Source: Halobaculum halobium (GTDB lineage: Archaea > Halobacteriota > Halobacteria > Halobacteriales > Haloferacaceae). Taken from it: a stretch of DNA of 64,000 bases. Numbering within the stretch: position 1 is the stretch's first letter; every line of letters begins with the position of its first letter. A model generated the notes under the pieces. That model ran no database searches. It saw nothing but the letters and a program-made list of their open reading frames with translations, and was not told the origin of the DNA. The stretch covers positions 868,001 through 932,000 of the forward strand of contig NZ_CP126158.1 of assembly GCF_030127145.1 (NCBI RefSeq), written 5' to 3'. The position numbers and the translations under genes were made by a program. Below, piece by piece: positions 1,943 through 16,453 of this stretch.

Positions 1943-2995
1943 TCACGCAAGCCCGCCGAACGCGTTGCCGGCGAGCCCCGGTCCGGCCGGAACCATGATC
2001 CGCCCGTCAGCGACGGGAGCCGGGTCGTCGGCGACGAGGTCGGTCGCCAGCAGGTCGCCTGTCGCGAGCCCATGCGCGCGTTCGTCGCCGTCGGGAAGCG
2101 CGGCCGCGACGTGGACCGCCGCGGTCCGCGCAACGGCTGCGTCGATGGTCGTCGTAACGACCGGGTCGACGCCGGCGTGGGCGGCCGCGCGACCTGCCGC
2201 GAGCGCCCGCGAGGGACCGCCCAGCGCCATCGGCTTGAGGACGACCGCGTCGGCGGCGCCGGCAGCGATCACCTCGCCGACGCGGTACTGCGTCAGGGAC
2301 TCGTCGAGCGCGACGGGCGCGCCGACGCCGCGGAGCGCGGCGTGTCCGGCGAGGTCGTCCGCGGGAAGCGGCTGTTCGACGTACTCGACGAGTCCCTCCA
2401 GCGCCGCCAGCGCGCGCCGCGCGTCGGCCCGGTCCCAGCCGCCGTTCGCATCGACCCGGAGCGCGATCGCGTCGCCGTCCGTGTCGTTCGTCTCAGCCGC
2501 CCCGAGAGCGTCGTCGACGGCGCGTACTCGATCGACGTCCTCCTCCACCGGTCTCGTGCCGACTTTTAGTTTCACCGTCCGGTAGCCAGAAGCGACCGCC
2601 GTCTCCGCGTCCGCGACGGTCTCGGCGACGGTCCCGTCGCCAACGGTCGCGTTCGCGGGGACGGACAGCGGCGGGGACCCGCGCGCCAGCGTCGCGGCGA
2701 CCGCCCGCCCCGCCCGCCGAGCGAACGCGTCCCGATACGCCGTCGTGACGGCGTGGCGCGCGGCAGGCGCCTCCGGTCCCGGCGGAACGCCGTCGTCGCG
2801 TGCGCGTTCGAGCGCCCCGCGACACTCGGACGGCGACTCGGTCCACCCCGGGAGCGGCGTCGCCTCGCCGACGCCCGTAGCACCGCCGATGTCGACGCGG
2901 ACGATGGTGCCCGCTCTGGTCTCGATGTCGCCGGCAGCGGTCGCCAGCGGCGTGGCGAGATCGACTGCGAACCCCCGAAGCGCGACGACGCTCAC
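1943..2995 (-). CDS. menC: o-Succinylbenzoate synthase
   Basis: This enolase-superfamily enzyme dehydrates SHCHC to o-succinylbenzoate in menaquinone synthesis. The 350-residue protein shows the superfamily's catalytic layout: KLK at 142-144, metal-binding Asp182 (RVDANGGW), Glu207 (YVEQPL), Asp231 (ALDES) and a second Lys254 (VLKPMALGG). The GTG start at 2993-2995 overlaps the menA stop codon as GTGA, which fixes the start and suggests translational coupling. Dipeptide epimerases share this fold, but the menA overlap favours MenC. Confidence 0.92.
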   Translation of the reverse strand: MSVVALRGFAVDLATPLATAAGDIETRAGTIVRVDIGGATGVGEATPLPGWTESPSECRGALERARDDGVPPGPEAPAARHAVTTAYRDAFARRAGRAVAATLARGSPPLSVPANATVGDGTVAETVADAETAVASGYRTVKLKVGTRPVEEDVDRVRAVDDALGAAETNDTDGDAIALRVDANGGWDRADARRALAALEGLVEYVEQPLPADDLAGHAALRGVGAPVALDESLTQYRVGEVIAAGAADAVVLKPMALGGPSRALAAGRAAAHAGVDPVVTTTIDAAVARTAAVHVAAALPDGDERAHGLATGDLLATDLVADDPAPVADGRIMVPAGPGLAGNAFGGLA

Positions 2996-3939
2996 AGCGC
3001 CAGCCCGACGGCGAACAGCGCCGCGAACGCGGCGAGCAGCTTCCCGGTGCGTTCCAGCGCGGGGTTGAGCGCGTCGCCCGCCGTCTCGGTCACCACGGTT
3101 TTCGCGAGGGGGACGGCGAGCGGGAGCGTCGCCATCGGCAATAACACCGTGAGGTCGCCCGTCGAGGCGGCGAACACCGGCGGGATCGCGTACGCCATGC
3201 CGATGAGGAGGACGAACTGCGCGCGCGAGAACCCGTAGCCGAACCGGACCGTGAGGGTGTTCTTGTCCGCCTCGGCGTCCTCCTCCCTGTCCCTGAGGTT
3301 GTTGACGACGAGGATGTCCGTCGAGATGGCGGCGATCGGAAGGGCGGCGACGACCGCGGCGACGGGCACCAGTTCGGCGCGCGGGACGAGCGTGAGGAAC
3401 TCGACGCCCAGCGCGGCGGCGGCCTGGACGTAGTAGGTGCCCGCGACGGCGACGAGGCCGAAGAAGACGAACACGAACACGTCGCCGAGGCCGTGGTACG
3501 CCAGCGGGTACGGGCCGCCGGTGTAGGCCACGCCCATCGCCACCGAGACGAGCCCGACGATCATGATCGGCAGGCCCGCGACCGCGACGAGATACGCGCC
3601 GACGACGATGGCCGCGAGGAACGTCAGCCACATCGCCCGCTTCACCTCGGCGGGGTCGATGAGCCCGCCCGCCGTCACTCGGGTGAATCCCTCGCGCTCG
3701 GCGGTATCCGCGCCCCTCTCCGCGTCGTAGTAGTCGTTCGCGAAGTTCGTCCCGATCTGGATCAGCGCAGCCCCCACGAGGGCGACGAGCGCCGGCAGCG
3801 GGGCGAACACGCCGTCGCGAACGGCGAGGCCCGTCCCCACGAGCACCGGCGCGAGCGCCGCCGGCATCGTCTGGGGGCGCGCAGCGATCACCCACGCGCG
3901 TCGCTTGGAGATGTCCGCTTGGCTCGTCTCCGTACTCAT
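2992..3939 (-). CDS. menA: 1,4-Dihydroxy-2-naphthoate polyprenyltransferase
   Basis: This UbiA-family membrane enzyme attaches the prenyl tail to dihydroxynaphthoate, giving demethylmenaquinone. The 315-residue protein has about nine hydrophobic segments. The first Asp-rich prenyl-diphosphate/Mg motif is at 68-78 (NDYYDAERGAD), and a second Asp-rich stretch lies in the loop near residues 190-215 (NNLRDREEDAEAD). The ATG at 3939 was chosen because the longer in-frame extension to 4041 is basic and proline-rich, unlike a haloarchaeal N-terminus. It overlaps menC by one GTGA, so the two are probably one transcript. Confidence 0.92.
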   Translation of the reverse strand: MSTETSQADISKRRAWVIAARPQTMPAALAPVLVGTGLAVRDGVFAPLPALVALVGAALIQIGTNFANDYYDAERGADTAEREGFTRVTAGGLIDPAEVKRAMWLTFLAAIVVGAYLVAVAGLPIMIVGLVSVAMGVAYTGGPYPLAYHGLGDVFVFVFFGLVAVAGTYYVQAAAALGVEFLTLVPRAELVPVAAVVAALPIAAISTDILVVNNLRDREEDAEADKNTLTVRFGYGFSRAQFVLLIGMAYAIPPVFAASTGDLTVLLPMATLPLAVPLAKTVVTETAGDALNPALERTGKLLAAFAALFAVGLAL

Positions 3940-4590: not shown

Positions 4591-4684
4591 CCGGCAGGTC
4601 GCGGTGGCGGTAGTGTCGCTGTCGCGGTGCGGAAACCACTAGGAGTTGTACCGCGAGTGAAGGCCGGAAGGCCCGAACGAGCGG

Positions 4685-4816
4685 CTCTTTTGGCATTACG
4701 GGAAGTCTTCGACTTCCCGTCAGCAGCAGGAATGCGAGGCGTTCCTGCAGCATGAACGGGTTTTGGCGGGGTTCGACGAGCGAGCGAAGCGAGCGAGGAG
4801 GACCCCGCCAAAAGAG
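4685..4816 (+). repeat. Three consecutive stem-loops with an alternative long-range pairing
   Basis: In the gap between convergent genes there are three adjacent hairpins. Stem 1 is ACGGGAAGTC (4698-4707) paired with 4711-4720 around a 3-base loop. Stem 2 is 4726-4735 paired with 4739-4748 (one G-T pair), also with a 3-base loop. Stem 3 is TTTTGGCGGGG (4761-4771) paired perfectly with 4803-4813. A further segment, CTCTTTTGGC (4685-4694), is the exact reverse complement of 4807-4816 and could compete with stem 3. The interior holds a 15-base string, CGAGCGAAGCGAGCG (4781-4795), that recurs exactly at 37511-37525. It could be a two-way terminator, a small mobile repeat or a structured RNA. Confidence 0.75.
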
Positions 4817-4822
4817 GTTCGT

Positions 4823-5764
4823 TTAGTAGTGCCATGGGTAGTCGCTGAAGTCCTGCTCTCTACCCGCTAAGAAGGCGTCGCGGCCCTCCTGGGCCTCCGG
4901 GGTCATGTACGCCAGTCGGGTCGCCTCGCCGGCGAACACCTGCTGACCGACCATCCCGTCGTCGGTCATGTTGAACGCGTACTTCAGCATCCGCATCGCC
5001 GTCGGCGACTTGCTCGTCATCTCGTCGGCCCACTCCAGCGCCACGTCCTCCAGGTCCTCGTGAGATATCGCCTCGTTGGCCATCCCCATGTCGACGGCCT
5101 CCTCCGCCGAGTAGGTCTTCCCGCGGAAGAACACCTCGCGGGCCTTCTTCTGGCCGACCTGCTTGGCGAGGTACGCCGAGCCGAATCCGCCGTCGAAGCT
5201 CGCCACGTCGGGGTCCGTCTGGAGGAACTTCGCGTGCTCCTCGCTGGCGAGCGTGAGGTCGCAGATGACGTGCAGCGAGTGGCCGCCGCCGACGGCCCAA
5301 CCCGGGACCACGGCGACGACGGGCTTGGGCATGAAGCGGATGAGCCGCTGGACCTCGAGGATGTGGAGGCGACCCGCCTTCGCCTCCCGCACGAGTTCGT
5401 CGTCGGACTCGTCGGCCTCGTCGTCGTCGCGGTACTCGTAGCCCGACTCCCCGCGGACGGACTGGTCGCCGCCCGAGCAGAACGCCCAGCCGCCGTCCTT
5501 CGGCGACGGGCCGTTGCCGGTGAGGAGGACGCAGCCGACGTTCGCCCGCTTGCGGGCGTCGTCGAGCGCGGCGTACAGCTCGTCCACGGTGCCGGGGCGG
5601 AACGCGTTGCGCTTCTCGGGGCGATCGAACGCGATCCGAACCGTGGGCGAGTCGATCGCGCGGTGGTAGGTGATGTCGTCGAACGCCTCGCTGCCGTCGA
5701 CCGGCTCCCAGCGCTCAGGGTCGAAGATCGCCGAGACGTCGTCCGCGTCGTCGCTGTCGCTCAT
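4823..5764 (-). CDS. menB: 1,4-Dihydroxy-2-naphthoyl-CoA synthase
   Basis: This crotonase-family enzyme closes the second ring from o-succinylbenzoyl-CoA. The 313-residue protein has the MenB-specific FCSGGDQ (95-101) and the oxyanion-hole segment GWAVGGGHSLH (155-165), followed by QTDPDVASFDGGFGS (182-196). Length and these motifs separate it from ordinary enoyl-CoA hydratases such as the one at 19629. The ATG at 5764 precedes a typical acidic N-terminus. It is on the same strand as menA and menC but separated from them by the convergent CMD gene, so it must be transcribed separately. Confidence 0.93.
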   Translation of the reverse strand: MSDSDDADDVSAIFDPERWEPVDGSEAFDDITYHRAIDSPTVRIAFDRPEKRNAFRPGTVDELYAALDDARKRANVGCVLLTGNGPSPKDGGWAFCSGGDQSVRGESGYEYRDDDEADESDDELVREAKAGRLHILEVQRLIRFMPKPVVAVVPGWAVGGGHSLHVICDLTLASEEHAKFLQTDPDVASFDGGFGSAYLAKQVGQKKAREVFFRGKTYSAEEAVDMGMANEAISHEDLEDVALEWADEMTSKSPTAMRMLKYAFNMTDDGMVGQQVFAGEATRLAYMTPEAQEGRDAFLAGREQDFSDYPWHY

Positions 5765-5872
5765 ACCCGAACGCGCGGCCGGCCCGCGCAAAAAGGTGCG
5801 CCTGTTGTGGGATCGTGACCGTCACGCGATCGTTCCCCAGTGTATTTGCCAACCGGGCAACAACTCTCGCGC

Positions 5873-6316
5873 ATGTCCCTCGCTACGTCCGTCCTCGTCA
5901 GGGTCGTCCACGTCGTCGGAATGGCGCTCGTGTTCGGCGGCGCAGCGTCCGCGTGGGCGGCACTTCGAACCCCGGCCGCCGGAGCAACGAGCGGCTTCGA
6001 CCCGGTCTCGCTCGCTCGGACCTACGAGTGGGTCTTCTGGGGGGCGATGGGCGCGATGGTCGTCACCGGCGTGGGCAACCTCGGCGCGCTCGGACCGCCG
6101 GGCCCGGCGAGTCGCTGGGGGACGATACTGACGGCGAAGCTCGTCGCGATCGCCGTCTTCGTCCTCGGGTCGTTCGTTCGAACGCTCGTCGTGTTCAGGC
6201 TTGGGCGAGACGGCTCCGCGGGCGCCGGCCGTTCACTCCTCGCCAGGAGCTACGGGGCGACGGCCGGCGCAGTGGTGATCCTCGTCTCGCTCGCGGAGGT
6301 GCTTGCGCATGGCTGA
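5873..6316 (+). CDS. Four-helix membrane protein, CopD/DUF2269-like
   Basis: A 147-residue protein with four hydrophobic segments (about residues 5-25, 48-66, 80-100, 125-145) and His residues near helix 1 (VVHVVGMALVFGG). This resembles the small CopD/DUF2269-type membrane proteins, some of which bind haem or copper. A similar protein is at 58165-58626. The ATG at 5873 starts the first helix directly; the in-frame extension to 5840 is not needed. Its last 8 bases overlap the next gene, so the two are coexpressed. Function is unknown. Confidence 0.72.
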   Translation: MSLATSVLVRVVHVVGMALVFGGAASAWAALRTPAAGATSGFDPVSLARTYEWVFWGAMGAMVVTGVGNLGALGPPGPASRWGTILTAKLVAIAVFVLGSFVRTLVVFRLGRDGSAGAGRSLLARSYGATAGAVVILVSLAEVLAHG

Positions 6317-6833
6317 GGCCGGGCGCTTCGAACCCTGGGTCGTCTCGTCGTTCAACCTCGTCGCACTGAGCGTCGTCGGGATCACCGCAGCACACGTCGG
6401 CGGCGCTCTCGAGGGCGAACTCGCCGGATTCGGGACGCTCCCGGGCGTCGCCGTCTTCGTCTACCTGTGGCTCCTCACCGCGGGTGCGACCCGGTGGGCG
6501 CTGGCCGGCCGCGGCCTCGCCGGCTTGCGGGACGGCCTCGGCGGCCTCCGGTCGCTTCTCGTCCGCGGCGTCGCGGCCGGGGCGCTCATCGGGACGGCGT
6601 TCCTCCTCGGAGTGCTCGTCGTGTCGTTTCTCGTCAGCCTCGCACAGAACGGCCTACAGCTTCTCTCGATGGCACTCATCGCGCTCATCGGGTGCGCTGT
6701 CGCGGGCGTCGTCGGGGGCCTCATCGGCGGACTGTCGGTCGTCCTGGACGCCGGCGGGTACTGGGCGGCAGGGAAGATCGTCGACCGCTGGGTGGACCCG
6801 AACCGATCAGCGAGGCCCGCCGGCGACGAGTAG
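6309..6833 (+). CDS. Unrecognised small membrane protein
   Basis: A 174-residue protein with about four predicted membrane helices (around residues 10-30, 42-58, 80-107, 115-150) and a Gly-rich stretch near GGLIGG. The C-terminus is short, charged and probably cytoplasmic. The ATG at 6309 overlaps the previous gene's stop (8-base overlap), indicating one operon of two small membrane proteins. I do not recognise the family. Confidence 0.68.
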   Translation: MAEAGRFEPWVVSSFNLVALSVVGITAAHVGGALEGELAGFGTLPGVAVFVYLWLLTAGATRWALAGRGLAGLRDGLGGLRSLLVRGVAAGALIGTAFLLGVLVVSFLVSLAQNGLQLLSMALIALIGCAVAGVVGGLIGGLSVVLDAGGYWAAGKIVDRWVDPNRSARPAGDE

Positions 6834-6942
6834 CGTCGGCGTCGTCCCGCGGTCGCGCTCCCGAGGCCCACGATCGCCCGCCGCGTGGCCGAGCCGGGGG
6901 CGTCCGTCGAGAAACCGGCGTCCGCCACTCGGCGCTCAACGC

Positions 6943-8739
6943 TCAGTCAGTCAATCGTTCGGCGGTGCGCTCGGCGATCTCCTCGCGCACGCGGTGGCTC
7001 GCCTCGGCGTCGCTCGCGACCTCGATCACGTCGGTCCCGTCGCTCGCGGCGCTCTCGCGGTACAACTCGCGGAACCCCTCGCGGTCGTCGCCGTCGACGC
7101 GGGCAAATGACAGGTCGTACAGCTCTCCCGTGGGCTCGAAGTCGAGGTCGTGGGGCGTCTTGAACTGGCTCGTGAACGGCGGGTCGAACGCCTCGATCGG
7201 GAGCATGTGGAAGATGCCGCCGCCGTCGTTGTTGATCAGAACGACCGTCGCGCCGACGTCACACCGCTCCAGTGCGAGCAGGCCGTTCATGTCGTGGTAG
7301 TACGCGAGGTCGCCGGTGACGAGCGTCAACTCGTCCGTCGTCGCCGACCCGGCGCCCAGCGCCGTCGAGACGATGCCGTCGATGCCGGAGGCTCCCCGGT
7401 TCCCGAGCATCGTCAGCCCCTTGGCCGCGGGGGCGGCGAAGCGGTCGGCGTCGCGGACGGGCATCGAGTTCGAGACGAACACGGTCGACGGCTCGGGCGC
7501 CAACTCGGTCACGTCGGCGAGCACGCGGCCTTCGAAGAAGCGTCCGCCGTCGGCGGTGGCCTCGACGGCGTCCCAGTGGGCGGCCTCGGCGGCCTCCCAG
7601 CGCTCGCGCCACGCGGTCGAATCGGAGTCGAGCGCGCTCCCGACCCCGCCGCCCCCACCCACCTGCCGCGAGAGCGCGCCGCAGAGCCGCGAGGGGTCGG
7701 CGACGACCAGGTCGGTGGCTGCGAACTCCGCCTCGCGCCACCCGCCGGCGGGGTCGACGAGCAGTTGTCGCGCGCCGGACCCCGCGAGGTACTTCCGGAG
7801 CGGTTTCGAGGTCGGCGAGGCGCCGAACCGCACGACGACCTCCGGGTCCGGCCAGTCCTCCGGAACACCGCCCGCGAGGAAGCCGTCGTAGCCGCCGAGG
7901 ACGGGCGCGACTCGGACAGCCGAGCCGAATCGAAGCCCCGAGAGCGGGTCCGCGAGCACGGGGAACCCGGTCGCGTGCGCCAGCGCGGTGACTGCCTGGG
8001 GGTCGGGGCCCGGCGGGTCCGCGGGCCCGGCGACGATCAGGCCGCGCTCCGCGTCGAGCACGCTGGCGATGCGCTGGAGGTCGCGGTCGTCGGGCATCGG
8101 GTGACCGGCAGTCGTCGAGACGAACGGGCGGCCGCCCTCGCGTCCCTGGGCGGCGAGTTCGGGGAGATCGTCGGGCACGTCGCCGTCGACCGCGACGGGT
8201 TCCAGTGGTTTGCAGAACGGGACGTTCAGGTGAACCGGACCGGCCGGGGTGCCCTCCGCGGTCGACACGCCGCGCGCGAGGTCGGTGCGCAGCGAGCGCA
8301 GTTTCCGGTCGTCGGCCGCGGGCTCGGGGAGATCCTTGTACCACCGGACGGCGTCGCCGTACAGTTTCTCCTGATCGACGGTCTGGTTGGCGCCGGAGTC
8401 GCGCAGTTCCGGCGGCCGATCGGCCGTGAGCAGGAGCATCGGTACTCTGGACTGGGCGGCCTCCATCACCGCCGGATGGAAGTTCGCGGCTGCGGTGCCG
8501 GACGTGCACACGAGCGGCGTCACCTCGCCTGTGCGGCGGGCGCGACCGAGCGCGAAGAAGGCGGAGGCGCGCTCGTCCAGGTGCGAGAACACGTGGACGT
8601 CGGGGTGTTCGGCGAGCGCGACGGTCAGCGGCGTCGAGCGCGAACCGGGGGTGACGCAGACGGCGTCCACGCCTGTCGCCGCGAGCTCGTCGGCGACGGC
8701 GCGACCCCACAGCGTGTTTCGGTTCGGGGCGGCGGTCAT
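6943..8739 (-). CDS. menD: SEPHCHC synthase (thiamine-diphosphate enzyme)
   Basis: MenD joins isochorismate and 2-oxoglutarate in the first committed step to menaquinone. The 598-residue length fits the family. The N-terminal PYR domain has the conserved cofactor-activating Glu56 (HLDERASAFF) and the substrate-loop motif TPGSRSTPL (30-38). The C-terminal PP domain has the diphosphate-binding GDLAYYHDMNGLLAL and INNDGGGIF stretch. No isochorismate synthase (menF) or MenH gene was seen in the window, so the upstream step must be encoded elsewhere. Confidence 0.94.
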   Translation of the reverse strand: MTAAPNRNTLWGRAVADELAATGVDAVCVTPGSRSTPLTVALAEHPDVHVFSHLDERASAFFALGRARRTGEVTPLVCTSGTAAANFHPAVMEAAQSRVPMLLLTADRPPELRDSGANQTVDQEKLYGDAVRWYKDLPEPAADDRKLRSLRTDLARGVSTAEGTPAGPVHLNVPFCKPLEPVAVDGDVPDDLPELAAQGREGGRPFVSTTAGHPMPDDRDLQRIASVLDAERGLIVAGPADPPGPDPQAVTALAHATGFPVLADPLSGLRFGSAVRVAPVLGGYDGFLAGGVPEDWPDPEVVVRFGASPTSKPLRKYLAGSGARQLLVDPAGGWREAEFAATDLVVADPSRLCGALSRQVGGGGGVGSALDSDSTAWRERWEAAEAAHWDAVEATADGGRFFEGRVLADVTELAPEPSTVFVSNSMPVRDADRFAAPAAKGLTMLGNRGASGIDGIVSTALGAGSATTDELTLVTGDLAYYHDMNGLLALERCDVGATVVLINNDGGGIFHMLPIEAFDPPFTSQFKTPHDLDFEPTGELYDLSFARVDGDDREGFRELYRESAASDGTDVIEVASDAEASHRVREEIAERTAERLTD

Positions 8740-8821
8740 GGCCGCCGCTTCGGCCGGCCGGCGGATAAACGGCCGTATCTCCGTCCCGTCGTCGACGCGG
8801 GGCGACGATGCGCCTTGGTGG

Positions 8822-9244
8822 TTATCCCAGTAATCGGCTGTGTTCGACCTTCATACACCGATCCTGTGTGGTCAGCAGACCGGCGCCCTCGGCGCGCGCG
8901 AGCGCCTCGTCGTCGGTGATGCCGAGTTGAAGCCACAGCCCCTCCACGTCGCCGCGGGCCTCGTGGCGTGCGAGCACGTCGTCGACGATGTCCGACACCT
9001 CTTCGCTCGGGCGGAACACGTCGACCAACGCGATCTCCTCCTCGACGTCCGCGAGCGAGTCGTACGCCTCGCGGCCGAGAATCTCGTCGGCGTAGGGATT
9101 CACCGGGATCACCTCGTAGCCGCGTTCCTGCAGGTACGCGGGGATGTCGTGGGCGGCCTTCCCCGGCGTGCTCGAACACCCTACGACCGCGACAGGGTCC
9201 ATCGACAGCAACTCGTGCAGGCCGTCGTCATCGGTGACTGGCAT
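8822..9244 (-). CDS. CoA-binding domain protein
   Basis: A 140-residue single-domain protein with a Rossmann-like CoA-binding fold. The glycine-containing first loop reads VAVVGCSSTPGKAAHDIP, followed by GYEVIPVNPYADEILG and a C-terminal segment LWLQLGITDDEA that is typical of the stand-alone YccU-like group. Function is unknown in most members. The ATG at 9244 was preferred to an extension to 9271. It is 82 bases upstream of menD on the same strand and may share its transcript. Confidence 0.85.
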   Translation of the reverse strand: MPVTDDDGLHELLSMDPVAVVGCSSTPGKAAHDIPAYLQERGYEVIPVNPYADEILGREAYDSLADVEEEIALVDVFRPSEEVSDIVDDVLARHEARGDVEGLWLQLGITDDEALARAEGAGLLTTQDRCMKVEHSRLLG

Positions 9245-9315
9245 GCTCGAGCGTCCGCCTCCATCGGTCAAAAGGGTTCGTCCGGATCGAACGCGCCGCG
9301 GCGGCGACCTGCGTG

Positions 9316-9924
9316 TCAGGCGTTCGCCAGCCTGACCGACGGCTCGCCGTCCTCGCTGGTCTCGATGATCCCGTCGAACAGTTGCTTCAGGGTGTTCATC
9401 GTTTGGTCGTCGTGGGCCGTGGAGTCGAGACAGTACAGCCCGAGGCCGTCGACGCTTTGGATCCGCCCTGTGAACACGTGGAGGAACCGGAACACTGTCT
9501 GGAGATCCGAGTACATCAACAGCGTCGACAGCGAGTGGACCATGACGCGGTTCTGTCGGATGCCGCGGTCCTTGTAGAACGCCTCCAGGAACGACGAGAG
9601 CTTGATCCCGATGCCGGTCATATCCACCGGAGAGGAGGTGTACTTGATGCGGTCGCTGTCGCGCACGTCGTTGACGCCCTGCTGGCGCGTGACGGTGTCG
9701 ACGACCGCGACTGGCCGACCCTCGTACGGTTCGCGCTTCTCGAACTGTTTCAGAAGGCGATCCGCCGAGTCTTTGGTCGTCACCATGATCGCGCCCTCAC
9801 CGTTTCGCGTTCCCTCCGCGAGTACGTCGAGCGCGAGTTCGCGCTTCCCGCTCAGCGGGGGACCGGTGAGGAGAACGTTCGATCCGGGCTCGATCTCCGC
9901 CCCGAGCGCCTCTACCTCATACAT
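9316..9924 (-). CDS. RecA/RAD55-like single-domain ATPase
   Basis: A 202-residue RecA-superfamily protein of the haloarchaeal KaiC/RAD55-like type. The Walker A loop is GPPLSGKREL (about residues 21-30), and a Walker-B-like strand appears in the NRVMVHSLSTLLMYSD region, although without an obvious acidic pair. Such proteins are often signalling or gas-vesicle/archaellum-associated ATPases in haloarchaea, but nothing nearby assigns a role. Length is about that of one RecA core, without output domains. The ATG at 9924 begins the first beta strand. Confidence 0.75.
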   Translation of the reverse strand: MYEVEALGAEIEPGSNVLLTGPPLSGKRELALDVLAEGTRNGEGAIMVTTKDSADRLLKQFEKREPYEGRPVAVVDTVTRQQGVNDVRDSDRIKYTSSPVDMTGIGIKLSSFLEAFYKDRGIRQNRVMVHSLSTLLMYSDLQTVFRFLHVFTGRIQSVDGLGLYCLDSTAHDDQTMNTLKQLFDGIIETSEDGEPSVRLANA

Positions 9925-10077
9925 AGAATGCCTCCGCGAACCGATCGGCGCAGACGGCGCGCTCTCGCGGGCTCGTCGTTCGCTCCGTCTCGCCGGGAGT
10001 CATCCAACTACACATGGGTTGCCGTGAGCCGGTATTATTCTTTATGATTAGCTGGACGACGTGACGCCCCTCGGTGG

Positions 10078-10923
10078 TCATCCCATCACCGCCACGGCTC
10101 GGCCAGCGACGAACGCCGCCGCCGCGAGAAACGTCCCGCGTTTGATCCACCGCTGTGCCGTCCCCGGATCCCGGAATCCCCAGGCGGTCGCGCCGAGCAT
10201 CGTCGCGTCCGCGGGCACGACGACCGCGAGATACGCCAGACCGAACGTCCCGTCGACGTAGGGTATGGCGCTCGCAAGCGTCGCCGTCACCATCGCGACC
10301 GTCGCGAGCGCGAGCGCGGGCCGCTCGCCGACGACGATCGGAAGCGTCCGGAGCCCCTCCTCGCGGTCTCCGGCCACGTCCTCGACATCCTTTACCACCT
10401 CGCGCGCGAACGTCGCCGTCGCGGCCAGCCCGAACAGCGTCCACGTCGGCGGCGCGACCGGCCCGACCGCGGCCGCCCCGAACAGAAACGTCGAGCCGGT
10501 GAGGGAGGCGACGACCGCGTTTCCCACCGCCGGCAACCCCTTGAACAGTTGCGTGTACGCCAGCAGTGCCAGGAGGTTCACAACCGCGATTACCAGCGCC
10601 AGCGGCGGCAGCGACAGCGCCGCGGCCGTGGCGATCAGAAACAGCGCGGCCGCGAACCCCGCCGCCTCGCGGGCCGAAACCCGGCCGCTCGGGATCGGCC
10701 GCTCTGGCCGGTTCACGGCGTCGATGTCGCGGTCGAAGTAGTCGTTGACCGCGTTCCCGGCGCCCGTCGCCGCCGCGGTCGCGATCACCGCGGCCGCGAC
10801 CGCCCAAGCCGCGTCAAGCCCGCCCGCGACGAACGAGCCGACGAAGGTGAGCGACCCCGCTGCGACCGCGTTGCCGACGCGGGCGAGTTCGAGGTACCCG
10901 CCGATCGTCCGAATCGCGTCCAT
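10078..10923 (-). CDS. Digeranylgeranylglyceryl phosphate synthase
   Basis: This UbiA-family membrane enzyme adds the second geranylgeranyl chain to GGGP, building the archaeal diether lipid core. The 281-residue protein has eight to nine hydrophobic segments. The first Asp motif is NDYFDRDID (60-68), followed by NRPERPIPSG, which is characteristic of DGGGP synthases. The second is KDVEDVAGDREEG. The NRPxRPIPSG segment separates it from the MenA paralogue at 2992-3939. Confidence 0.92.
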   Translation of the reverse strand: MDAIRTIGGYLELARVGNAVAAGSLTFVGSFVAGGLDAAWAVAAAVIATAAATGAGNAVNDYFDRDIDAVNRPERPIPSGRVSAREAAGFAAALFLIATAAALSLPPLALVIAVVNLLALLAYTQLFKGLPAVGNAVVASLTGSTFLFGAAAVGPVAPPTWTLFGLAATATFAREVVKDVEDVAGDREEGLRTLPIVVGERPALALATVAMVTATLASAIPYVDGTFGLAYLAVVVPADATMLGATAWGFRDPGTAQRWIKRGTFLAAAAFVAGRAVAVMG

Positions 10924-11263
10924 CGTTCGCGGTCACCGGCCGGTTGGGGATAAAGGGCGCGGGAAGAACGCGACGCCGGTGAGCGCTTGGGCGGAGAGAT
11001 CGCCCCGCGGCGAGCGTGTTCGGGCGGCGGAGTCCGAACAGCCGGTGTCGCTCTCCCGCCGTGGTCTGCGACCACGCGGAGAGCCCGACGCCGGAGCTCA
11101 CGCAGCATGGTACCGAACCAACGCCCGCCCGACTATCTCCTCGCCTCGAGCCGTAGTGGCCGTCGCTATCGGTCGATGACTGCCAACTGTTGTCTATCTC
11201 TTTGGTTCCCCGATCGATTCGAAGCGCGGGACTTAAGCGGGGCTGCCGGAAACAGACAGGTGC
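10924..11263. other. Intergenic stretch before tRNA-Arg
   Basis: These 340 bases lie between the divergent DGGGP synthase gene and the tRNA. I see no convincing protein-coding frame and no repeat. The last 35 bases hold the likely tRNA promoter. Confidence 0.5.
11232..11237 (+). promoter_or_regulatory. Probable TATA-like box of tRNA-Arg
   Basis: CTTAAG lies about 27-32 bases before the tRNA 5' end, the usual archaeal TATA position. Support is position and AT content only. Confidence 0.4.
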
Positions 11264-11338
11264 GGGCGCTTAGCTCAGTCTGGACAGAGTGCTTGGCTTC
11301 GGACCAAGTTGCCGCGGGTTCAAATCCTGCAGCGCCCA
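11264..11338 (+). tRNA. tRNA-Arg (anticodon TCG)
   Basis: The sequence folds as a complete cloverleaf of 75 bases including the discriminator A. The acceptor stem GGGCGCT/AGCGCCC is perfectly paired. The D stem is GCTC/GAGT with a 10-base loop. The anticodon stem is CTTGG/CCAAG with loop CTTCGGA, giving anticodon TCG (reads CGA, Arg). The variable region is five bases and the T arm is GCGGG-TTCAAAT-CCTGC. No CCA is encoded. The composition of the DNA changes immediately downstream, so this tRNA is a likely insertion site for the island at 11339-16237, although I could not find a duplicated 3' end. Confidence 0.95.
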
Positions 11339-11523
11339 TTCCTTCGCCGCCCGTTCCACCTCCAACCGGAGGTTCTCCGTACAGGCCCTCTCGACACCAA
11401 ATCCGGCGTTTGAACCTTCTCTGAACTCCCCACTTTCTGAGCGTTCAAATGGAATTCCCATGTGTTGGTCTGAGCTGCCGAGATGGCCACTCGGTCTGGT
11501 TTTGCCGGAAAACAAACAATTAG

Positions 11524-11534
11524 TCTTTTTTATT
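11524..11534 (+). promoter_or_regulatory. AT-rich TATA element for the membrane-protein gene at 11555
   Basis: A T-rich run (CTTTTTTATTT) is centred about 26 bases before the ATG at 11555, the spacing expected for a leaderless haloarchaeal transcript. It is one of the most AT-rich spots in the window. Confidence 0.5.
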
Positions 11535-11554
11535 TCTGTGTCTCCTGAACGTGG

Positions 11555-13138
11555 ATGTATGGGAAGTTGATAAAAGATGGCCCTAGTGTCGGGCTTGTTG
11601 CGACTTTTGGGGGTATCGAACTCGTTTTACGATCGTTCGGGGAATCATCATCCCCAGCTACCGATTTTATTGCCTCGGCGACGAGCCTCTTCGGAAGTGA
11701 AATCGTTACTTCGCCTATCCTATCTTGGAGTATCGGATGGATGTTTTTGGGAAGTTTAGCATATCAGATCTTCTACCGGGTTGATGTCCTCCAAGACGAG
11801 GCTCATGTCAGCCGTCGGTCTGCCTATTTCGCTGGAGCCGCTCTTGCGACACTCATTGGAGCAGGACTTACGTGGCGTGTCTTTGGGTTGGTAGTCTCAT
11901 ATGGATCTATCCCGCCTGTCATTGCTGATGGTATTATCCAAGCCACATTGCTTCTCGCGTTGATTCTCATACTCATGTCTGACAACCCAGTTACTGATGG
12001 ACAACTCGCGGTAGTACTCGGTGCAGCGATGATGATCGCTGCGATGCTGTATCCTCTTCCCGAGGTTGCTGTTATTGTCTGGTTCATTACGGGTATTGGC
12101 GTCAACAGAATTCCGTTAGGGCCCCAGCTCAAGCAAGTTCTCAATGATCCGGTTGAACGATTGATGATTGGCGTCGCCGCAACGACAGTAAATATACGGG
12201 GTTTTGTGTCCGCATTGTATATCATCGCGGGACTTATTCTCTCTGTAGCAGTATTTCTTGATTCACCAGGAACCATTGAGCAAAACATCCGAACTCTCGT
12301 TGTGAGCTTCACAACCGGGTCAGGTTCTGGGGATTTCGCCGTTTCAACAGTTGAAGAAGTCGCATTTCTGAGCTTGACCGCTTTCGCGCCAGCAGTGTAC
12401 GGTGTTTGGTACTGGTTGCGAGTTACAGAACGACTGCCGTTCGCCTTGGGACTGGCAGCAGACCCAACGGAAGACGATTCAGGATCCGGTCGGTTTGGTG
12501 TGCGAGAATGGGGGCCAGATGATAGCGGTGGGGATCATACCGAAGTCGAGGGTGTAGCGTATCGACCAATTCCCCCTGGATTTGGAATCCCAATTGTTCT
12601 TCTCTTCGCACCGTTACTCGTCTACGTTGATTCCACATCAGAGATCTCGTCGGGAACCATTCCGCGTGGCTATCTCATCGCCGCGGGGTCCGCTGCCATC
12701 CTAGCAATTGGGACTATTGGCATCACCATCATACGGGCACGGACTATGTCAGAATACGACTCGGACGCTCCGACGGTTGCTGCTTGGGCCCTTGCGCTGC
12801 AACTAGCGTTCGTTGCATTACTGGGTCCTACTGAAGTCACGTCTGTTATCAACAATTTCCTGACAGGTCAACGCTTAGGTGTTGATCTCACTGCTGTCGG
12901 GTCTGCACTTGCGGGCGCTATTATTTTGGGCGCGCTGGTGGTTCTTCCCTCGAAGATTCCCAAGATCGCGGATGCGAATCCGGTGCTTGGCATGAGCCTC
13001 CTTGCTGTCGTGTTCGGAGTAGTAGTGGCCGTGATTGGCGCAGGAAATACGCTTGTGGGTGGTATTGCCGGAATAGCGGTTATTGCTGGTATTGCTGGGG
13101 TTGTTATTGGATCCATAGTAGAAATTAGTGATTTTTGA
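11555..13138 (+). CDS. Large polytopic membrane protein of the island, family unknown
   Basis: The 527-residue protein has about twelve to fourteen hydrophobic segments and one long soluble acidic loop (about residues 298-340, rich in Asp, Ser and Gly). The last two or three segments form a Gly/Ala/Val/Ile-rich hairpin. I recognise no transporter signature, nucleotide-binding site or catalytic motif. Codon use is strikingly different from neighbouring genes, with many A- or T-ending codons, indicating acquired DNA. It starts with a promoter-spaced ATG and is the first gene after tRNA-Arg. Other proteins of the island are on the opposite strand or further downstream. Confidence 0.8.
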   Translation: MYGKLIKDGPSVGLVATFGGIELVLRSFGESSSPATDFIASATSLFGSEIVTSPILSWSIGWMFLGSLAYQIFYRVDVLQDEAHVSRRSAYFAGAALATLIGAGLTWRVFGLVVSYGSIPPVIADGIIQATLLLALILILMSDNPVTDGQLAVVLGAAMMIAAMLYPLPEVAVIVWFITGIGVNRIPLGPQLKQVLNDPVERLMIGVAATTVNIRGFVSALYIIAGLILSVAVFLDSPGTIEQNIRTLVVSFTTGSGSGDFAVSTVEEVAFLSLTAFAPAVYGVWYWLRVTERLPFALGLAADPTEDDSGSGRFGVREWGPDDSGGDHTEVEGVAYRPIPPGFGIPIVLLFAPLLVYVDSTSEISSGTIPRGYLIAAGSAAILAIGTIGITIIRARTMSEYDSDAPTVAAWALALQLAFVALLGPTEVTSVINNFLTGQRLGVDLTAVGSALAGAIILGALVVLPSKIPKIADANPVLGMSLLAVVFGVVVAVIGAGNTLVGGIAGIAVIAGIAGVVIGSIVEISDF

Positions 13139-13408
13139 CAGACAAGTACGTAATGGGCATCTTAGTGTTGAAAATATATTGCGTTTCTATAGCTCATACA
13201 CTATCGGATTTGTCATCATCTCCTTCATAGACGGAAGTTGTCCGAACACTATTTCATCTGTATCTATCATCAAGCGTCGACGGTCCCCCTGCGCATCTTC
13301 TTGGGACCGCGATCGACGTGCATCCCTCCCTCTCACTTCATAGGGAGCGGGCCGATGGGGAGGCGGCGCGCGAGTGGCCCCTGTGGGTTCGAGCGCGCTC
13401 CGAGCCGG
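13139..13408. other. Gene-free island spacer
   Basis: The first half of this 270-base gap between convergent genes is AT-rich and the second half returns to high GC near 13265. No repeat, RNA or coding frame stands out. The abrupt shift may mark a join between DNA of two origins. Confidence 0.4.
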
Positions 13409-14200
13409 CTACTCGACGAACTCCAAGTTTTCTGGCTTGTACGTGTACAGCGTGATTTCCTGGTCGTCACAGTACGACGAGAGCAACGCCTCGCTGAATC
13501 CCTGCCAGTCGCCCGGTCCCTCGTCCAACGAACTGGGGAACGCTACCCGGACTGCCTCGCTGTCGAGTTCCTGACCGTAGAGTTCGACCTTCGTCTCCGG
13601 CGGCAGCACCTCGACGACGACCGCCTCTGACGCCTCCTGGTCGTCGGCCCGCTTCACCCGATCACCCGGCTGGAACGGGTTGTCCGGCTTCTGGTTCATG
13701 TGTGCCGTGTTCGGTCCGAGGTCCTGCAGGCTGTTCATCGGCTGCGCCGCCAGGTGCTGCAACTTCTCGGGCTCGTCGCCGGAGTACGCCTCCCCCGTTC
13801 GGACCTTCGATTTCAGAACTGCCATGTGCTCCCAGCCGAGGAGGATCAGCGAGTCCTCGTTATCGCGGTGCCACGCCATCACGATGATGTCGTCCTCCGA
13901 GTCGTTCTCGACGAGCGTTCGCGGGAGGAAGGCAGCCACATCACGCGAGGTCTTGACGTCGATATTGTACCCGAACACCTCGAAATCGTGTCCCGAGAAG
14001 CTTTCAGGATTACATCGCCGCATCGCGTCCTCGTTCTCCCATTCCCACATCTCTGCCGGGACGTATTCTCGACAGAACTGCTCGAACGCGATCTCCCCGA
14101 GGTTCCCCACGCGCTTCTTTCCGACGTCCTCCGCACCCTGCTGTTTCGCCTGGTAGTCAGCTCGGGACCGATCGATCTCGTCTGGCGTGAACTGATACAC
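13409..14200 (-). CDS. Protein with PD-(D/E)XK nuclease-like motif
   Basis: A 263-residue soluble protein. Residues 33-83 read like a PD-(D/E)XK core: a helix with Glu36 (GNLGEIAFEQF), then Asp72 (GHDFEVFG) and the strand IDVKTS with Asp81 and Lys83. This layout is found in restriction endonucleases, Holliday-junction and repair nucleases. The C-terminal part (about 170-263) has a small beta-rich region of unknown type (GDRVKRADDQEASEAVVVEVLPP). The GTG start at 14200 is supported by a TATAAA box 26-31 bases upstream. No partner methylase adjoins it. Nuclease activity is inferred from the motif alone. Confidence 0.75.
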   Translation of the reverse strand: MYQFTPDEIDRSRADYQAKQQGAEDVGKKRVGNLGEIAFEQFCREYVPAEMWEWENEDAMRRCNPESFSGHDFEVFGYNIDVKTSRDVAAFLPRTLVENDSEDDIIVMAWHRDNEDSLILLGWEHMAVLKSKVRTGEAYSGDEPEKLQHLAAQPMNSLQDLGPNTAHMNQKPDNPFQPGDRVKRADDQEASEAVVVEVLPPETKVELYGQELDSEAVRVAFPSSLDEGPGDWQGFSEALLSSYCDDQEITLYTYKPENLEFVE

Positions 14201-14225
14201 TATTCACCGCACTGCGAAGTTGTAC

Positions 14226-14231
14226 TTTATA
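14226..14231 (-). promoter_or_regulatory. TATA box of the PD-(D/E)XK gene at 14200
   Basis: TATAAA on the minus strand sits 26-31 bases before the GTG at 14200, exactly where a leaderless haloarchaeal promoter is expected. It decides in favour of the GTG start. Confidence 0.6.
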
Positions 14232-14286
14232 CGTACCTGTCCAAATTGGCTGTTTTCGTATTCAGGGTAATCTTGTCGCCGAGCCC

Positions 14287-14601
14287 TTAGAGATCGTCCT
14301 CGTCGAGTTCCCCAACGAGATACGCTTCTCCTTTCTCGGTGATCCGGTAGTTCCCTTGCCCGGTGTCGGTTTTCGTCACTATGTGGTGGTCAAGAAGTTC
14401 TGAAAGACGAGAAGAAATGTGTTGTCGCGTGAGATCGAGATTCGCACTCATTATCGAGGGCGACAGAATGAGGCCGGATTCCTTGAGAAGTTCGGTTTTC
14501 CCGACGCGACACCGGCCGTAAACCACGTAGAAGTCGTGGCCCGGCGACTCGAACGCCGTGTCGAGGGCGTCGAGTTCCTCCGTCCGATCGTAGAAGGTCA
14601 T
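14287..14601 (-). CDS. Chimeric protein: truncated archaeal ATPase start joined to a phage-repressor-like winged helix
   Basis: The 104-residue product has two parts that normally belong to different proteins. Residues 1-41 match the beginning of archaeal P-loop ATPases of mobile elements (MTFYDRTEELDALDTAF, then the P-loop GRCRVGKTELLKE). From about residue 42 it reads as a phiH1-repressor-type winged helix (ESGLILSPSIMSANLDLTRQ, then the wing GQGNYRITEKGEAYL). The join falls at LLKE/SGL, where both parents have similar residues, suggesting recombination at short homology. The rest of the ATPase is missing, and so is the first helix of the repressor. It may still bind DNA and act as the island's regulator, or be a remnant. 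Confidence 0.72.
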   Translation of the reverse strand: MTFYDRTEELDALDTAFESPGHDFYVVYGRCRVGKTELLKESGLILSPSIMSANLDLTRQHISSRLSELLDHHIVTKTDTGQGNYRITEKGEAYLVGELDEDDL

Positions 14602-14666
14602 ACTCTGAGTAATGATTAGTACCATAATGATTGTGCCTTTCTCCCAGGCTCAACGTCATCCCCATC

Positions 14667-14673
14667 TTCATAA
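14667..14673 (+). promoter_or_regulatory. TATA-like box of the nuclease-like gene at 14697
   Basis: TTCATAA ends 24 bases before the ATG at 14697, consistent with a leaderless start. The divergent promoter of the chimeric repressor gene (start 14601) lies in the same 95-base gap, so a regulator bound here could control both. Confidence 0.4.
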
Positions 14674-14696
14674 GCTGGTGATAGCATTATCCCGCC

Positions 14697-15938
14697 ATGG
14701 CAAGTGCGGCGTCGCCGCTCTCGGAACCACGCGTGTTGGCGCACGCGAAGCGCCGCCTGTTCCCAGATGATGCCGACGACGGGTACGCGGTCGTCGATAC
14801 CCAGTTCTCATCCGATCAGTGGCTCGCAAACGAGTCCATCGATCCGGACATCACGGACCAACTAGCGCCTTTCAATCACGTCCGGGTCGGCTCTGGCTAC
14901 CCCGACCTCATCGGTGTTCGTCTACTGAGCGACGAGTTACTGGCCGTGGACCGCCTCGGCGATGACCCACCGCTGGTGGCGGTCGAAGCGAAAGGCCACA
15001 CAAATCGAAGTGCAGCCGACGTCGAGCGTGGAATCGTCCAGGCGTACGACCGGCTCCACGAAGCGAACGCCGCGTACGTCGCAGTCCCGGCGGATACCGT
15101 CTCACAGTCTGCTCGGACGCTGGCCCGGGAGCTGAACGTCGGCATCCTCGGCGTGACTCCCGACGGAACAGTCGATCCGGTCGAAACACCTCGAGTCGTC
15201 GGAAACCGAACGACGACCGAGACGACGGCCATCCGATTCCAGGCCAGTGCGCAAGGCGTCGCCGACAAGTCGTTCGGCCTCAATCATCCGAAGAACTACC
15301 TCGCGTATCCACTCGCTGTCTCCCACCGCCGCGAGACGGAACAGGTTCTTTCGGAGTACGTCGTACGCGCCACCGATGACGCCAGAACCGGGGCGGCCTT
15401 TCTGAACCTCATCGACGACCAGTCCGCCTCGACTCGGCTGACTCCCCTCGGACGAGAGGTTGTCAGGTTCGCGTTGCGGGAGTACGAGTCGGTCGAGGCC
15501 GCGCTAAAGGAGTTCGACGACTGGAAGCGCTCGCGGGAACGCTTCTGTGATCTAGTCCCGAAGTGGGGCATGCTCACCAGACGTGTGGTATACGATTATC
15601 CGGCAACGCAGTTGCTCGTCGAAGAACTCCAGCATATGCACGAAGACGGTATGACCGAGCCATCCCTCCCCGACGTCGTGGAGTATCTTCACGAGCTACA
15701 CCCGTCATTCACCATCGAACTGTTCGTCCGCGGTGACGACGACGTCCGGAGTCGCGTCCTGAACGCCGACGGGGAGTTACAACGTGAGCCCCTCGGCGAT
15801 GGGGGCATCTACCATTCGCCGACTGTGTTCCAGCTCAAAGCGATGCTGTATCACGCCGGCATCCTGACTTCACGGGGTGCGGAACCGTCGAACCTGAACC
15901 CACCGACCGACGAGTGGGCGTTACGCGAGTCGATATAA
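14697..15938 (+). CDS. PD-(D/E)XK nuclease-like protein with C-terminal helical region
   Basis: A 413-residue soluble protein. Residues 60-130 contain the elements of a PD-(D/E)XK core: Pro69-Asp70 (GYPDLIG), then Glu97-Ala-Lys99 (LVAVEAKGH), then a helix with Gln115-Ala-Tyr117 (GIVQAYDRL) that resembles the RecB-type QxxxY element, and a strand AYVAVP. The C-terminal half (about 240-400) looks helical and may bind DNA (LTPLGREVVRFALREYESVE). An uncharacterised nuclease of an accessory region is the best guess. It is divergent from the chimeric repressor-like gene and from the second PD-(D/E)XK protein at 13409. Its GC is intermediate between the membrane gene and the core genome. Confidence 0.75.
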   Translation: MASAASPLSEPRVLAHAKRRLFPDDADDGYAVVDTQFSSDQWLANESIDPDITDQLAPFNHVRVGSGYPDLIGVRLLSDELLAVDRLGDDPPLVAVEAKGHTNRSAADVERGIVQAYDRLHEANAAYVAVPADTVSQSARTLARELNVGILGVTPDGTVDPVETPRVVGNRTTTETTAIRFQASAQGVADKSFGLNHPKNYLAYPLAVSHRRETEQVLSEYVVRATDDARTGAAFLNLIDDQSASTRLTPLGREVVRFALREYESVEAALKEFDDWKRSRERFCDLVPKWGMLTRRVVYDYPATQLLVEELQHMHEDGMTEPSLPDVVEYLHELHPSFTIELFVRGDDDVRSRVLNADGELQREPLGDGGIYHSPTVFQLKAMLYHAGILTSRGAEPSNLNPPTDEWALRESI

Positions 15939-15996
15939 CCAGCACGGCTGGAGTTCGTTGTCAGCCAAATCGGGTCGATACTCCCCTTTGATCTAA

Positions 15997-16152
15997 TCAG
16001 GGGTGGGTTCTCAGTGGGTGCAAGTGAGACCCACCGAAGCGGAATTCGCCGAATCCCTCAGCGAGCATCTTCGGCGGGTTCTCGCCGACAGGATCGAATC
16101 GAGTGTCTGTGAGCTGTTCCAGGCGGTCCCAGTCGATGGAGACGTGTCCCAC
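15997..16152 (-). pseudogene. Possible remnant coding frame at the island's right end
   Basis: Between 15939 and 16237 the minus strand has one frame that reads like protein: from a GTG at 16152 to a TGA at 15997-15999, 51 residues containing HVSIDWDRLEQLTDTRFDP, a short Gly/Phe-rich part and HLHPLRTHP. The frame stays open further upstream but meets the next gene out of frame and has no good start. I do not recognise it. It may be the tail of a lost island gene. The rest of the gap holds nothing visible. Confidence 0.3.
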
Positions 16153-16237
16153 TGGAGCATCGTCCAGCGGGGTTGAAATCGCGGGAGACGGAAGGACCGG
16201 CGATTGGTCGTTGCGCTCGGTCTCCGTCGACTCTCGC

Positions 16238-16453
16238 TTACTCCTCCTCCAAGAGCCCCATATCCTCGACGACGAGGTCGGCGATCCGGTCGGCGAGTTC
16301 GGCCTCGACGCCGGCGACGTCCTCGCCGTCGTGGCGCGCCTCGTTGTGTCGCTCTAGTTGGTCAGCGAGGTCCGAAAGCGGCACGCGCGTCCGGGTGTCG
16401 CACTCCTCACAGACGATGGGTACGGTGGGGTCGTCGTCCCCGTCGGTGGACAT
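16238..16453 (-). CDS. Small zinc-finger-like haloarchaeal protein
   Basis: A 71-residue acidic protein with one CxxC pair (IVCEECDT) followed about 20 residues later by a His pair (ERHNEARH), a C2H2-like arrangement that could bind one zinc ion. The C-terminal helix is very acidic (GLLEEE). The ATG at 16453 gives this compact product; an extension to 16711 would be basic and arginine-rich, an out-of-character shadow of the next gene. Role unknown. Confidence 0.7.
   Translation of the reverse strand: MSTDGDDDPTVPIVCEECDTRTRVPLSDLADQLERHNEARHDGEDVAGVEAELADRIADLVVEDMGLLEEE

What the first reader, a model, noticed from the sequence alone, without database searches (positions are those of the whole stretch)
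11339..16237. Compositionally foreign island directly behind tRNA-Arg(TCG) with a candidate nuclease pair
The DNA from just after the tRNA to about 16.2 kb is visibly richer in A+T and in A/T-ending codons than its flanks (most extreme at 11.5-13.2 kb). It encodes only accessory proteins: a large membrane protein, two proteins with PD-(D/E)XK-like motifs and a regulator-like chimera. tRNA genes are common archaeal integration sites. The set could be a small, undescribed defence or conflict island (two nucleases with a membrane partner). The functional idea is inference, and no duplicated tRNA end was found.
Basis: partly seen in the sequence, partly recalled or inferred. Interest (0 to 1): 0.75.

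Follow-up and report, generated by a model that had tools for sequence, protein, structure and literature searches.

The report
Decayed virus relic behind a tRNA
The odd DNA behind this tRNA gene is a patchwork: the worn-down remains of an integrated salt-loving-archaeon virus that kept one nuclease-like gene, next to an unrelated lone nuclease-like gene common in these archaea, and not a single new defence system.

Summary
In this Halobaculum genome, 11.34-15.94 kb is strongly A+T-rich against its flanks and sits directly behind tRNA-Arg(TCG). It is not one two-nuclease island but a mosaic. (1) 11339-11441 and 13314-14494 are remains of a pleolipovirus-type provirus. Two congeners carry the intact 13.8-13.9 kb provirus in the same tRNA, bounded by the 13-nt att sequence of Haloferax virus Halfgib1, with the same nuclease-like gene (here 13409-14200, up to 96% identical) in the same slot. 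Here the structural genes, integrase and attR are gone, and the 'regulator-like chimera' is the deletion scar: the viral regulator fused in frame to the start of an ATPase gene. (2) The 413-aa protein (14697-15938) belongs to a family found, nearly always once, in 60% of sampled Halobacteriales genomes, stand-alone and without a methyltransferase nearby; its predicted fold resembles a Type IIS restriction enzyme. (3) The 527-aa membrane protein is a rare orphan of unknown origin. The two nuclease-like genes co-occur no more than chance predicts. A second, independent Haloferax relic at the same tRNA also keeps an intact copy of the viral gene, which is under purifying selection. Biochemical activity and a defence role are inferred, not shown.

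The parts
11264..11338 (+). tRNA-Arg(TCG); its last 13 nt (11326-11338, CCTGCAGCGCCCA) are the left attachment site (attL)
   Evidence: ARAGORN; the same 13 nt is the annotated attP of Halfgib1 and is duplicated at both ends of the G001 and G008 proviruses
11339..11441 (+). Remnant of the left end of the provirus
   Evidence: Homologous to the DNA behind the tRNA only in the two congeners with an intact provirus (92% and 81% identity); in the other congeners similarity stops within about 20 nt of the tRNA
11555..13138 (+). 527-aa protein with about 10 predicted membrane spans, GC3 0.46; orphan of unknown origin lying where the viral core genes should be
   Evidence: Strong relatives in only 2 other genomes of 392, at other places (contexts); no phage, plasmid or genome-contig hit; span count
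13314..14494 (-). Retained viral segment (nuclease-like gene plus most of the regulator)
   Evidence: 92% DNA identity to the G008 provirus over 1.18 kb, 79% to G001
13409..14200 (-). 263-aa PD-(D/E)XK nuclease-like protein, short (viral) form of family phrog_18072
   Evidence: PHROG 18072 at E 3e-155; E36, D72, D81-x-K83 invariant in 22 aligned sequences; 96% identical to the G008 provirus copy; dN/dS 0.056
14287..14625 (-). Chimeric 112-aa ORF: first ~45 residues of an ATPase_2 protein fused in frame to the viral winged-helix regulator; join at about 14480-14494
   Evidence: Pfam ATPase_2 on residues 11-50, phrog_2440 regulator on 45-112; DNA match to the provirus ends at 14494 and match to an ATPase/413-aa gene pair starts at 14480; three-way alignment
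14495..14696 (.). 5' end of the ATPase_2 gene and the intergenic region between it and the 413-aa gene
   Evidence: Continuous DNA match 14480-15148 to G008:C2; 14556-15939 to Halorubrum loci
14697..15938 (+). 413-aa solitary PD-(D/E)XK protein with a predicted Type IIS-like (PaqCI/FokI-like) recognition region
   Evidence: P69-D70 and E97-x-K99 invariant in 19 aligned sequences; AlphaFold pLDDT 78.6; VIA-align Z 9.1 to PaqCI, 7.3 to the FokI recognition domain; present in 176 of 293 Halobacteriales genomes
16238..16453 (-). Conserved right flank of the variable site (71-aa zinc-finger-like protein, then CetZ-like and DHFR genes)
   Evidence: Found at the far side of the variable site in most congeners, at distances of 1.2 to 29 kb from the tRNA

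Best explanation
tRNA-Arg(TCG) is a recurrent landing site of mobile DNA in Halobaculum and its relatives. Shown by comparison: a pleolipovirus-type provirus integrated into the 3' end of this tRNA in an ancestor of this strain, next to an ATPase_2 / 413-aa nuclease-like gene pair. A later deletion removed the integrase, attR and most of the ATPase, fusing the start of the ATPase gene in frame to the viral regulator. The viral structural genes are also gone, and an A+T-rich membrane-protein gene of unknown origin lies where they should be. What is left is the viral nuclease-like gene, the fused regulator, the membrane-protein gene and the neighbouring 413-aa gene. Inferred: the viral nuclease-like gene is kept because it still works, most likely as a nuclease against competing DNA (an accessory or superinfection-type defence gene brought in by the virus). 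Also inferred: the 413-aa protein is a separate resident DNA-surveillance nuclease, probably sequence- or modification-specific.
For: Intact proviruses at the same tRNA in G001 and G008 with VP3-like, spike, NTPase, regulator and integrase proteins homologous to Halfgib1, bounded by CCTGCAGCGCCCAT. Window DNA 92% identical to the G008 provirus over 13314-14494; left-end remnant 11339-11441 shared only with these two. Deletion join at 14480-14494. The short nuclease-like form sits in the same slot, between NTPase and regulator/integrase, in six proviruses (G001, G008, G090 = Halfgib1, G112, G126, G096). An independent relic in Haloferax G095, also at tRNA-Arg(TCG), keeps an intact copy (95% to Halfgib1) with only fragments of NTPase and regulator. 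Purifying selection: dN/dS 0.045-0.065 between relic and nearest intact copies; 19 synonymous and 5 nonsynonymous changes on the window branch. Defence context of the family: Halfgib1 carries it next to a Type II restriction-modification pair and a SIR2 protein, and Halorubrum relatives next to an Mrr nuclease and a D12 methylase. The same site holds a complete Type I R-M system in G003.
Against: No direct evidence of expression or activity. The nuclease assignment of the 263-aa protein rests on motifs only: its structure model failed (pLDDT 39) and no usable Pfam or PDB match appeared. Only 7 of 28 integrase-matched elements carry it nearby, so it is an accessory gene. The time since decay is unknown, so part of the purifying selection may predate it. 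The membrane protein is not explained.
Confidence: 0.8

Rival explanations
1. A genuine small defence or conflict island: the two nuclease-like proteins and the membrane protein act together as one system acquired as a unit.
For: Adjacent genes with foreign composition; two intact PD-(D/E)XK active-site motifs; the two nuclease-like families lie within 6 kb of each other in G029, G080 (a fragment) and G103 as well.
Against: Separate histories: the 263-aa gene comes from the provirus, while the 413-aa gene is a stand-alone haloarchaeal gene. Genome co-occurrence is no better than chance, p = 0.12. The membrane protein is absent from the other loci of either. The genes lie on opposite strands. 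No PADLOC model matches either nuclease-like protein.
Confidence: 0.06
2. The island is dead DNA in ordinary decay; the open frames survive by chance and have no function.
For: Integrase, structural genes and attR are gone; the ATPase and regulator are broken into a fusion; G001 and G008 show decayed fragments of the 413-aa gene.
Against: The 263-aa and 413-aa frames are full length with all conserved motif residues intact; pairwise dN/dS about 0.06 for the first and 0.10-0.14 for the second against their nearest relatives; the same viral gene survives intact in an independent relic, G095.
Confidence: 0.12
3. The 413-aa protein is not a defence enzyme but a DNA-repair or recombination nuclease of haloarchaea that happens to lie at this tRNA.
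For: 176 of 293 genomes and 59 of 87 genera, nearly always one copy; no methyltransferase-like motif protein within 6 kb in 23 loci; no conserved neighbours in 20 further genera; nuclease domain also similar to NucS/EndoMS.
Against: Absent from about 40% of sampled genomes; decayed in two congeners (G001, G008); recognition-like C-terminal region most like Type IIS restriction enzymes.
Confidence: 0.4

Closest known systems
Haloferax virus Halfgib1 (MW344766; Pleolipoviridae; PMC7911831), an active provirus at tRNA-Arg; Halfvol3 of Hfx. volcanii is reported there at the corresponding tRNA
   Same: Same 13-nt att sequence at the 3' end of tRNA-Arg(TCG); carries a nuclease-like gene and winged-helix regulator homologous to the window's
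   Different: Halfgib1 is complete and inducible according to PMC7911831; the window keeps only about 1.3 kb of such an element and no integrase
phrog_18072 (viral protein family, function unknown)
   Same: The 263-aa protein matches over its full length, E 3e-155
   Different: PHROGs gives no function; the invariant PD-(D/E)XK residues and the longer cellular form with a repeated C-terminal domain are described here
Type IIS restriction endonuclease PaqCI (PMC10201449), and the FokI, BpuJI and N.BspD6I recognition domains
   Same: The 413-aa model has the PaqCI domain order (N-terminal nuclease, C-terminal recognition region) and aligns best to these
   Different: No cognate methyltransferase found nearby; sequence identity about 12%; no activity known
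PADLOC candidate PDC-S27 (archaeal ATPase_2 proteins)
   Same: The ATPase whose 5' end survives in the chimera belongs to a family whose full-length member matches PDC-S27 at E 6e-48
   Different: Only about 45 residues remain in the window, so no working ATPase

Membership tests
Integrated pleolipovirus-type provirus | Attachment site at a tRNA 3' end shared with related viruses | tested here: met
   attL 11326-11338 identical to Halfgib1 attP
Integrated pleolipovirus-type provirus | Duplicated att sequence at the far end (attR) | tested here: not met
   No repeat of 11 nt or more of the tRNA end in the following 6 kb
Integrated pleolipovirus-type provirus | Core genes (VP3-like, spike, NTPase) and integrase | tested here: not met
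   None at the site; translated search of the gaps between genes found no relic. It is therefore filed as a relic, not a provirus
Type IIS restriction endonuclease (413-aa protein) | PD-(D/E)XK catalytic residues | tested here: met
   P69-D70 and E97-x-K99 invariant in 19 aligned sequences
Type IIS restriction endonuclease (413-aa protein) | Recognition domain fold | tested here: inconclusive
   Best matches are PaqCI, FokI, N.BspD6I and BpuJI at Z 6.7-9.1, but the best Foldseek E is only 3.6e-3
Type IIS restriction endonuclease (413-aa protein) | Cognate methyltransferase encoded alongside | tested here: not met
   No methyltransferase-like motif within 6 kb in 23 loci (a motif heuristic)
Type IIS restriction endonuclease (413-aa protein) | Cleavage at a fixed distance from an asymmetric site | not testable with these tools
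   needs purified enzyme
Known anti-virus defence system (PADLOC) | Match to a system model | tested here: not met
   No hit for the two nuclease-like proteins or the membrane protein
PD-(D/E)XK nuclease (263-aa protein) | Conserved E, D and (D/E)-x-K residues | tested here: met
   E36, D72, D81, K83 invariant in 22 aligned sequences
PD-(D/E)XK nuclease (263-aa protein) | PD-(D/E)XK fold | tested here: inconclusive
   Model confidence too low, pLDDT 39; no PDB profile match

The most novel reading that the evidence does not exclude
The 413-aa family is a Type IIS-like (PaqCI/FokI-type) nuclease kept as a single, methyltransferase-free gene in most haloarchaea: a conserved, non-restriction-modification DNA-surveillance or genome-maintenance enzyme. 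The neighbouring viral nuclease-like gene is a repeatedly domesticated weapon of pleolipoviruses.
Probability: 0.3. Interest if true: 0.65.

Novelty: new member of a known kind. Interest (0 to 1): 0.42.

Why it matters
It shows how a temperate archaeal virus decays at a tRNA hotspot and what survives: the structural genes and integrase go, the accessory nuclease-like gene stays, and a deletion creates a chimeric regulator. An independent Haloferax relic keeps the same gene, which makes domestication of a viral nuclease testable in a genetically tractable genus. It also draws attention to a solitary Type IIS-like protein found in about 60% of sampled Halobacteriales genomes without a methyltransferase nearby, for which no function was found here.

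Tried and rejected
Single two-nuclease defence system: rejected on separate histories and chance-level co-occurrence. PADLOC, Pfam and NCBIfam models for the three main proteins: no usable hits. PDB profile searches with both nuclease-like families: no meaningful match. Structure of the 263-aa protein: failed, so no fold search was made. Origin of the 527-aa membrane protein: no phage, plasmid or wide genome-contig relatives; two strong relatives in order-wide genomes, both stand-alone. Viral-contig scan for the 263-aa protein: nothing. The idea that the 413-aa gene is generally tRNA-linked: looked promising in Haloferacaceae, but only 2 of 20 further genera have a tRNA within 4 kb, so dropped. 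The idea that the 263-aa protein is the restriction partner of the Halfgib1 cytosine methylase: unlikely, because that virus has its own Type II restriction enzyme next to the methylase. Relics in 15939-16237: none recognised.
Full report
WHAT WAS CLAIMED AND WHETHER IT IS THERE. tRNA-Arg(TCG) is at 11264-11338. GC drops from about 0.71 to 0.49-0.62 just behind it and recovers near 16.2 kb. Third-position GC and tetranucleotide composition of 11.5-13.2 kb lie far outside the range of the rest of the window. Four genes fill the stretch: a 527-aa membrane protein, a 263-aa protein, a 112-aa chimera and a 413-aa protein.

WHICH GENOME AND SITE. Two of the congeners have plasmid-sized contigs of exactly the lengths of the Halobaculum litoreum and H. 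marinum plasmids, so the genus is Halobaculum. All ten congeners in the set have this tRNA with the same left flank (UbiA, DUF7504, CoA-binding protein, menD), and most have the same right flank (zinc-finger-like protein, CetZ-like, DHFR), but what lies between differs between lineages. Distance from tRNA to right flank: about 1.2 kb in G010, 2.3 kb in G007 (413-aa gene plus an ATPase fragment), 4.9 kb here, 10 kb in G004 and G006, 15 kb in G001, 18 kb in G008, 29 kb in G002. In G003 a complete Type I restriction-modification system lies directly behind the tRNA. It is an integration hotspot.

THE VIRAL PART. In G001 and G008 the site holds a 13.8-13.9 kb provirus. Its VP3-like, spike, ORF7-like, NTPase, winged-helix regulator and integrase proteins match Haloferax virus Halfgib1. 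It is bounded by CCTGCAGCGCCCAT, at the tRNA end and again behind the integrase. The annotated attP of Halfgib1 is the same 13 nt, and Halfgib1 is reported to be integrated at tRNA-Arg in Hfx. gibbonsii (PMC7911831). The window aligns to the G008 provirus at 92% over 13314-14494. It also shares 11339-11441 with G001 and G008 only. These two pieces are the relic. The structural genes, integrase and attR are missing.

THE CHIMERA. Residues 11-50 of the 112-aa ORF match ATPase_2; residues 45-112 match a viral regulator family. At DNA level the match to the provirus runs to 14494, and the match to an ATPase / 413-aa gene pair in G008:C2 begins at 14480. The three-way alignment shows the window following the ATPase up to GAACTTCTCAAGGA and the viral regulator from GAATCCGGCCTC onwards. 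The join is best read as the scar of a deletion that took out the integrase, attR and most of the ATPase.

THE 263-aa PROTEIN. It matches phrog_18072. Residues E36, D72, D81 and K83 of a PD-(D/E)XK pattern are invariant in 22 aligned sequences. Viral and proviral copies are 263-265 aa; cellular copies of 338-351 aa carry a second copy of the C-terminal domain. Six proviruses carry it in the same slot, but a related provirus at the same tRNA in G129 does not, and only 7 of 28 closely related integrases have it nearby, so it is an accessory gene. Neighbours elsewhere include a Type II restriction-modification pair and a SIR2 protein in Halfgib1, an Mrr nuclease with a D12 methylase in Halorubrum, and a BREX cluster on a Halomontanus plasmid. 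In Haloferax G095 the same tRNA site holds a second, independent relic: intact 264-aa gene, fragments of NTPase and regulator, no integrase. dN/dS between relic and nearest intact copies is about 0.05-0.06; on the window branch there are 19 synonymous and 5 nonsynonymous changes. That it is a working nuclease is inferred.

THE 413-aa PROTEIN. Its PD...ExK residues are invariant in 19 aligned sequences. The AlphaFold model is usable (pLDDT 78.6). Its best structural neighbours are mostly Type IIS enzymes: PaqCI over the full length (Z 9.1), and the recognition domains of FokI, N.BspD6I and BpuJI on residues 185-413 (Z 6.7-7.3). PaqCI has the same order, N-terminal nuclease and C-terminal recognition domain (PMC10201449). 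The Foldseek score alone is weak, and the tool warns that Z under 8 may reflect only a common arrangement, so this is suggestive. The family is in 176 of 293 Halobacteriales genomes and 59 of 87 genera, nearly always once, with no conserved neighbour in 20 genera and no methyltransferase-like motif within 6 kb in 23 loci. Copies 89-91% identical, with the same ATPase start upstream, also sit beside tRNA-Arg(TCG) in Halorubrum. It is not an island-specific gene.

THE MEMBRANE PROTEIN. About ten predicted spans, GC3 0.46. Only two other genomes of 392 hold a strong relative, as a lone gene. It occupies the place of the viral core; whether it came as viral cargo or separately is unknown.

VERDICT. 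Foreign, yes; one defence island, no. It is a decayed pleolipovirus-type provirus with a retained accessory nuclease-like gene, abutting an unrelated resident nuclease-like gene, at a genus-wide hotspot.

Noticed in passing
L136 (Haloferax G095) 8293-11230: Second decayed pleolipovirus provirus at tRNA-Arg(TCG) that keeps an intact short-form nuclease-like gene next to fragments of NTPase and regulator.
   Followed up: partly
L028 (Halobaculum G003) 4626-10866: A complete Type I restriction-modification system lies directly behind the same tRNA-Arg(TCG), followed by integrases in L102.
   Followed up: partly
L035 (Halobaculum G010) 11179-11853: The shortest version of the site holds only what looks like a toxin-antitoxin pair (82-aa and 138-aa PIN-like proteins); the same two families occur in G002 (L104 5907-6563).
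   Followed up: no
L026 (G001 provirus) 2813-3856: Provirus cargo gene with weak matches to a PADLOC candidate (PDC-M19A) and DarG, suggesting that the slot between NTPase and regulator carries varying conflict genes.
   Followed up: no
L021 (Halfgib1) 8994-14219: Cargo region of the virus holds a Type II restriction enzyme, a cytosine methylase, the 265-aa nuclease-like protein and a SIR2-TPR protein.
   Followed up: partly
G000:C1 52640, 2768655, 2790546 and 2812648 (L193-L196): Four equal-scoring hits to a cytosine methylase, three of them about 22 kb apart near the contig end, suggesting a repeated element or an assembly repeat.
   Followed up: no
L124 (G008:C2) 8800-10850: A second, broken copy of the ATPase_2 / 413-aa gene pair elsewhere in G008, which gave the reference for the deletion join.
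   Followed up: partly
L033 9713-11702 and L106-L110: The 413-aa gene sits beside tRNA-Arg(TCG) in both Halobaculum and Halorubrum (87-91% identical to the window's), pointing to transfer between genera at the same tRNA site.
   Followed up: partly
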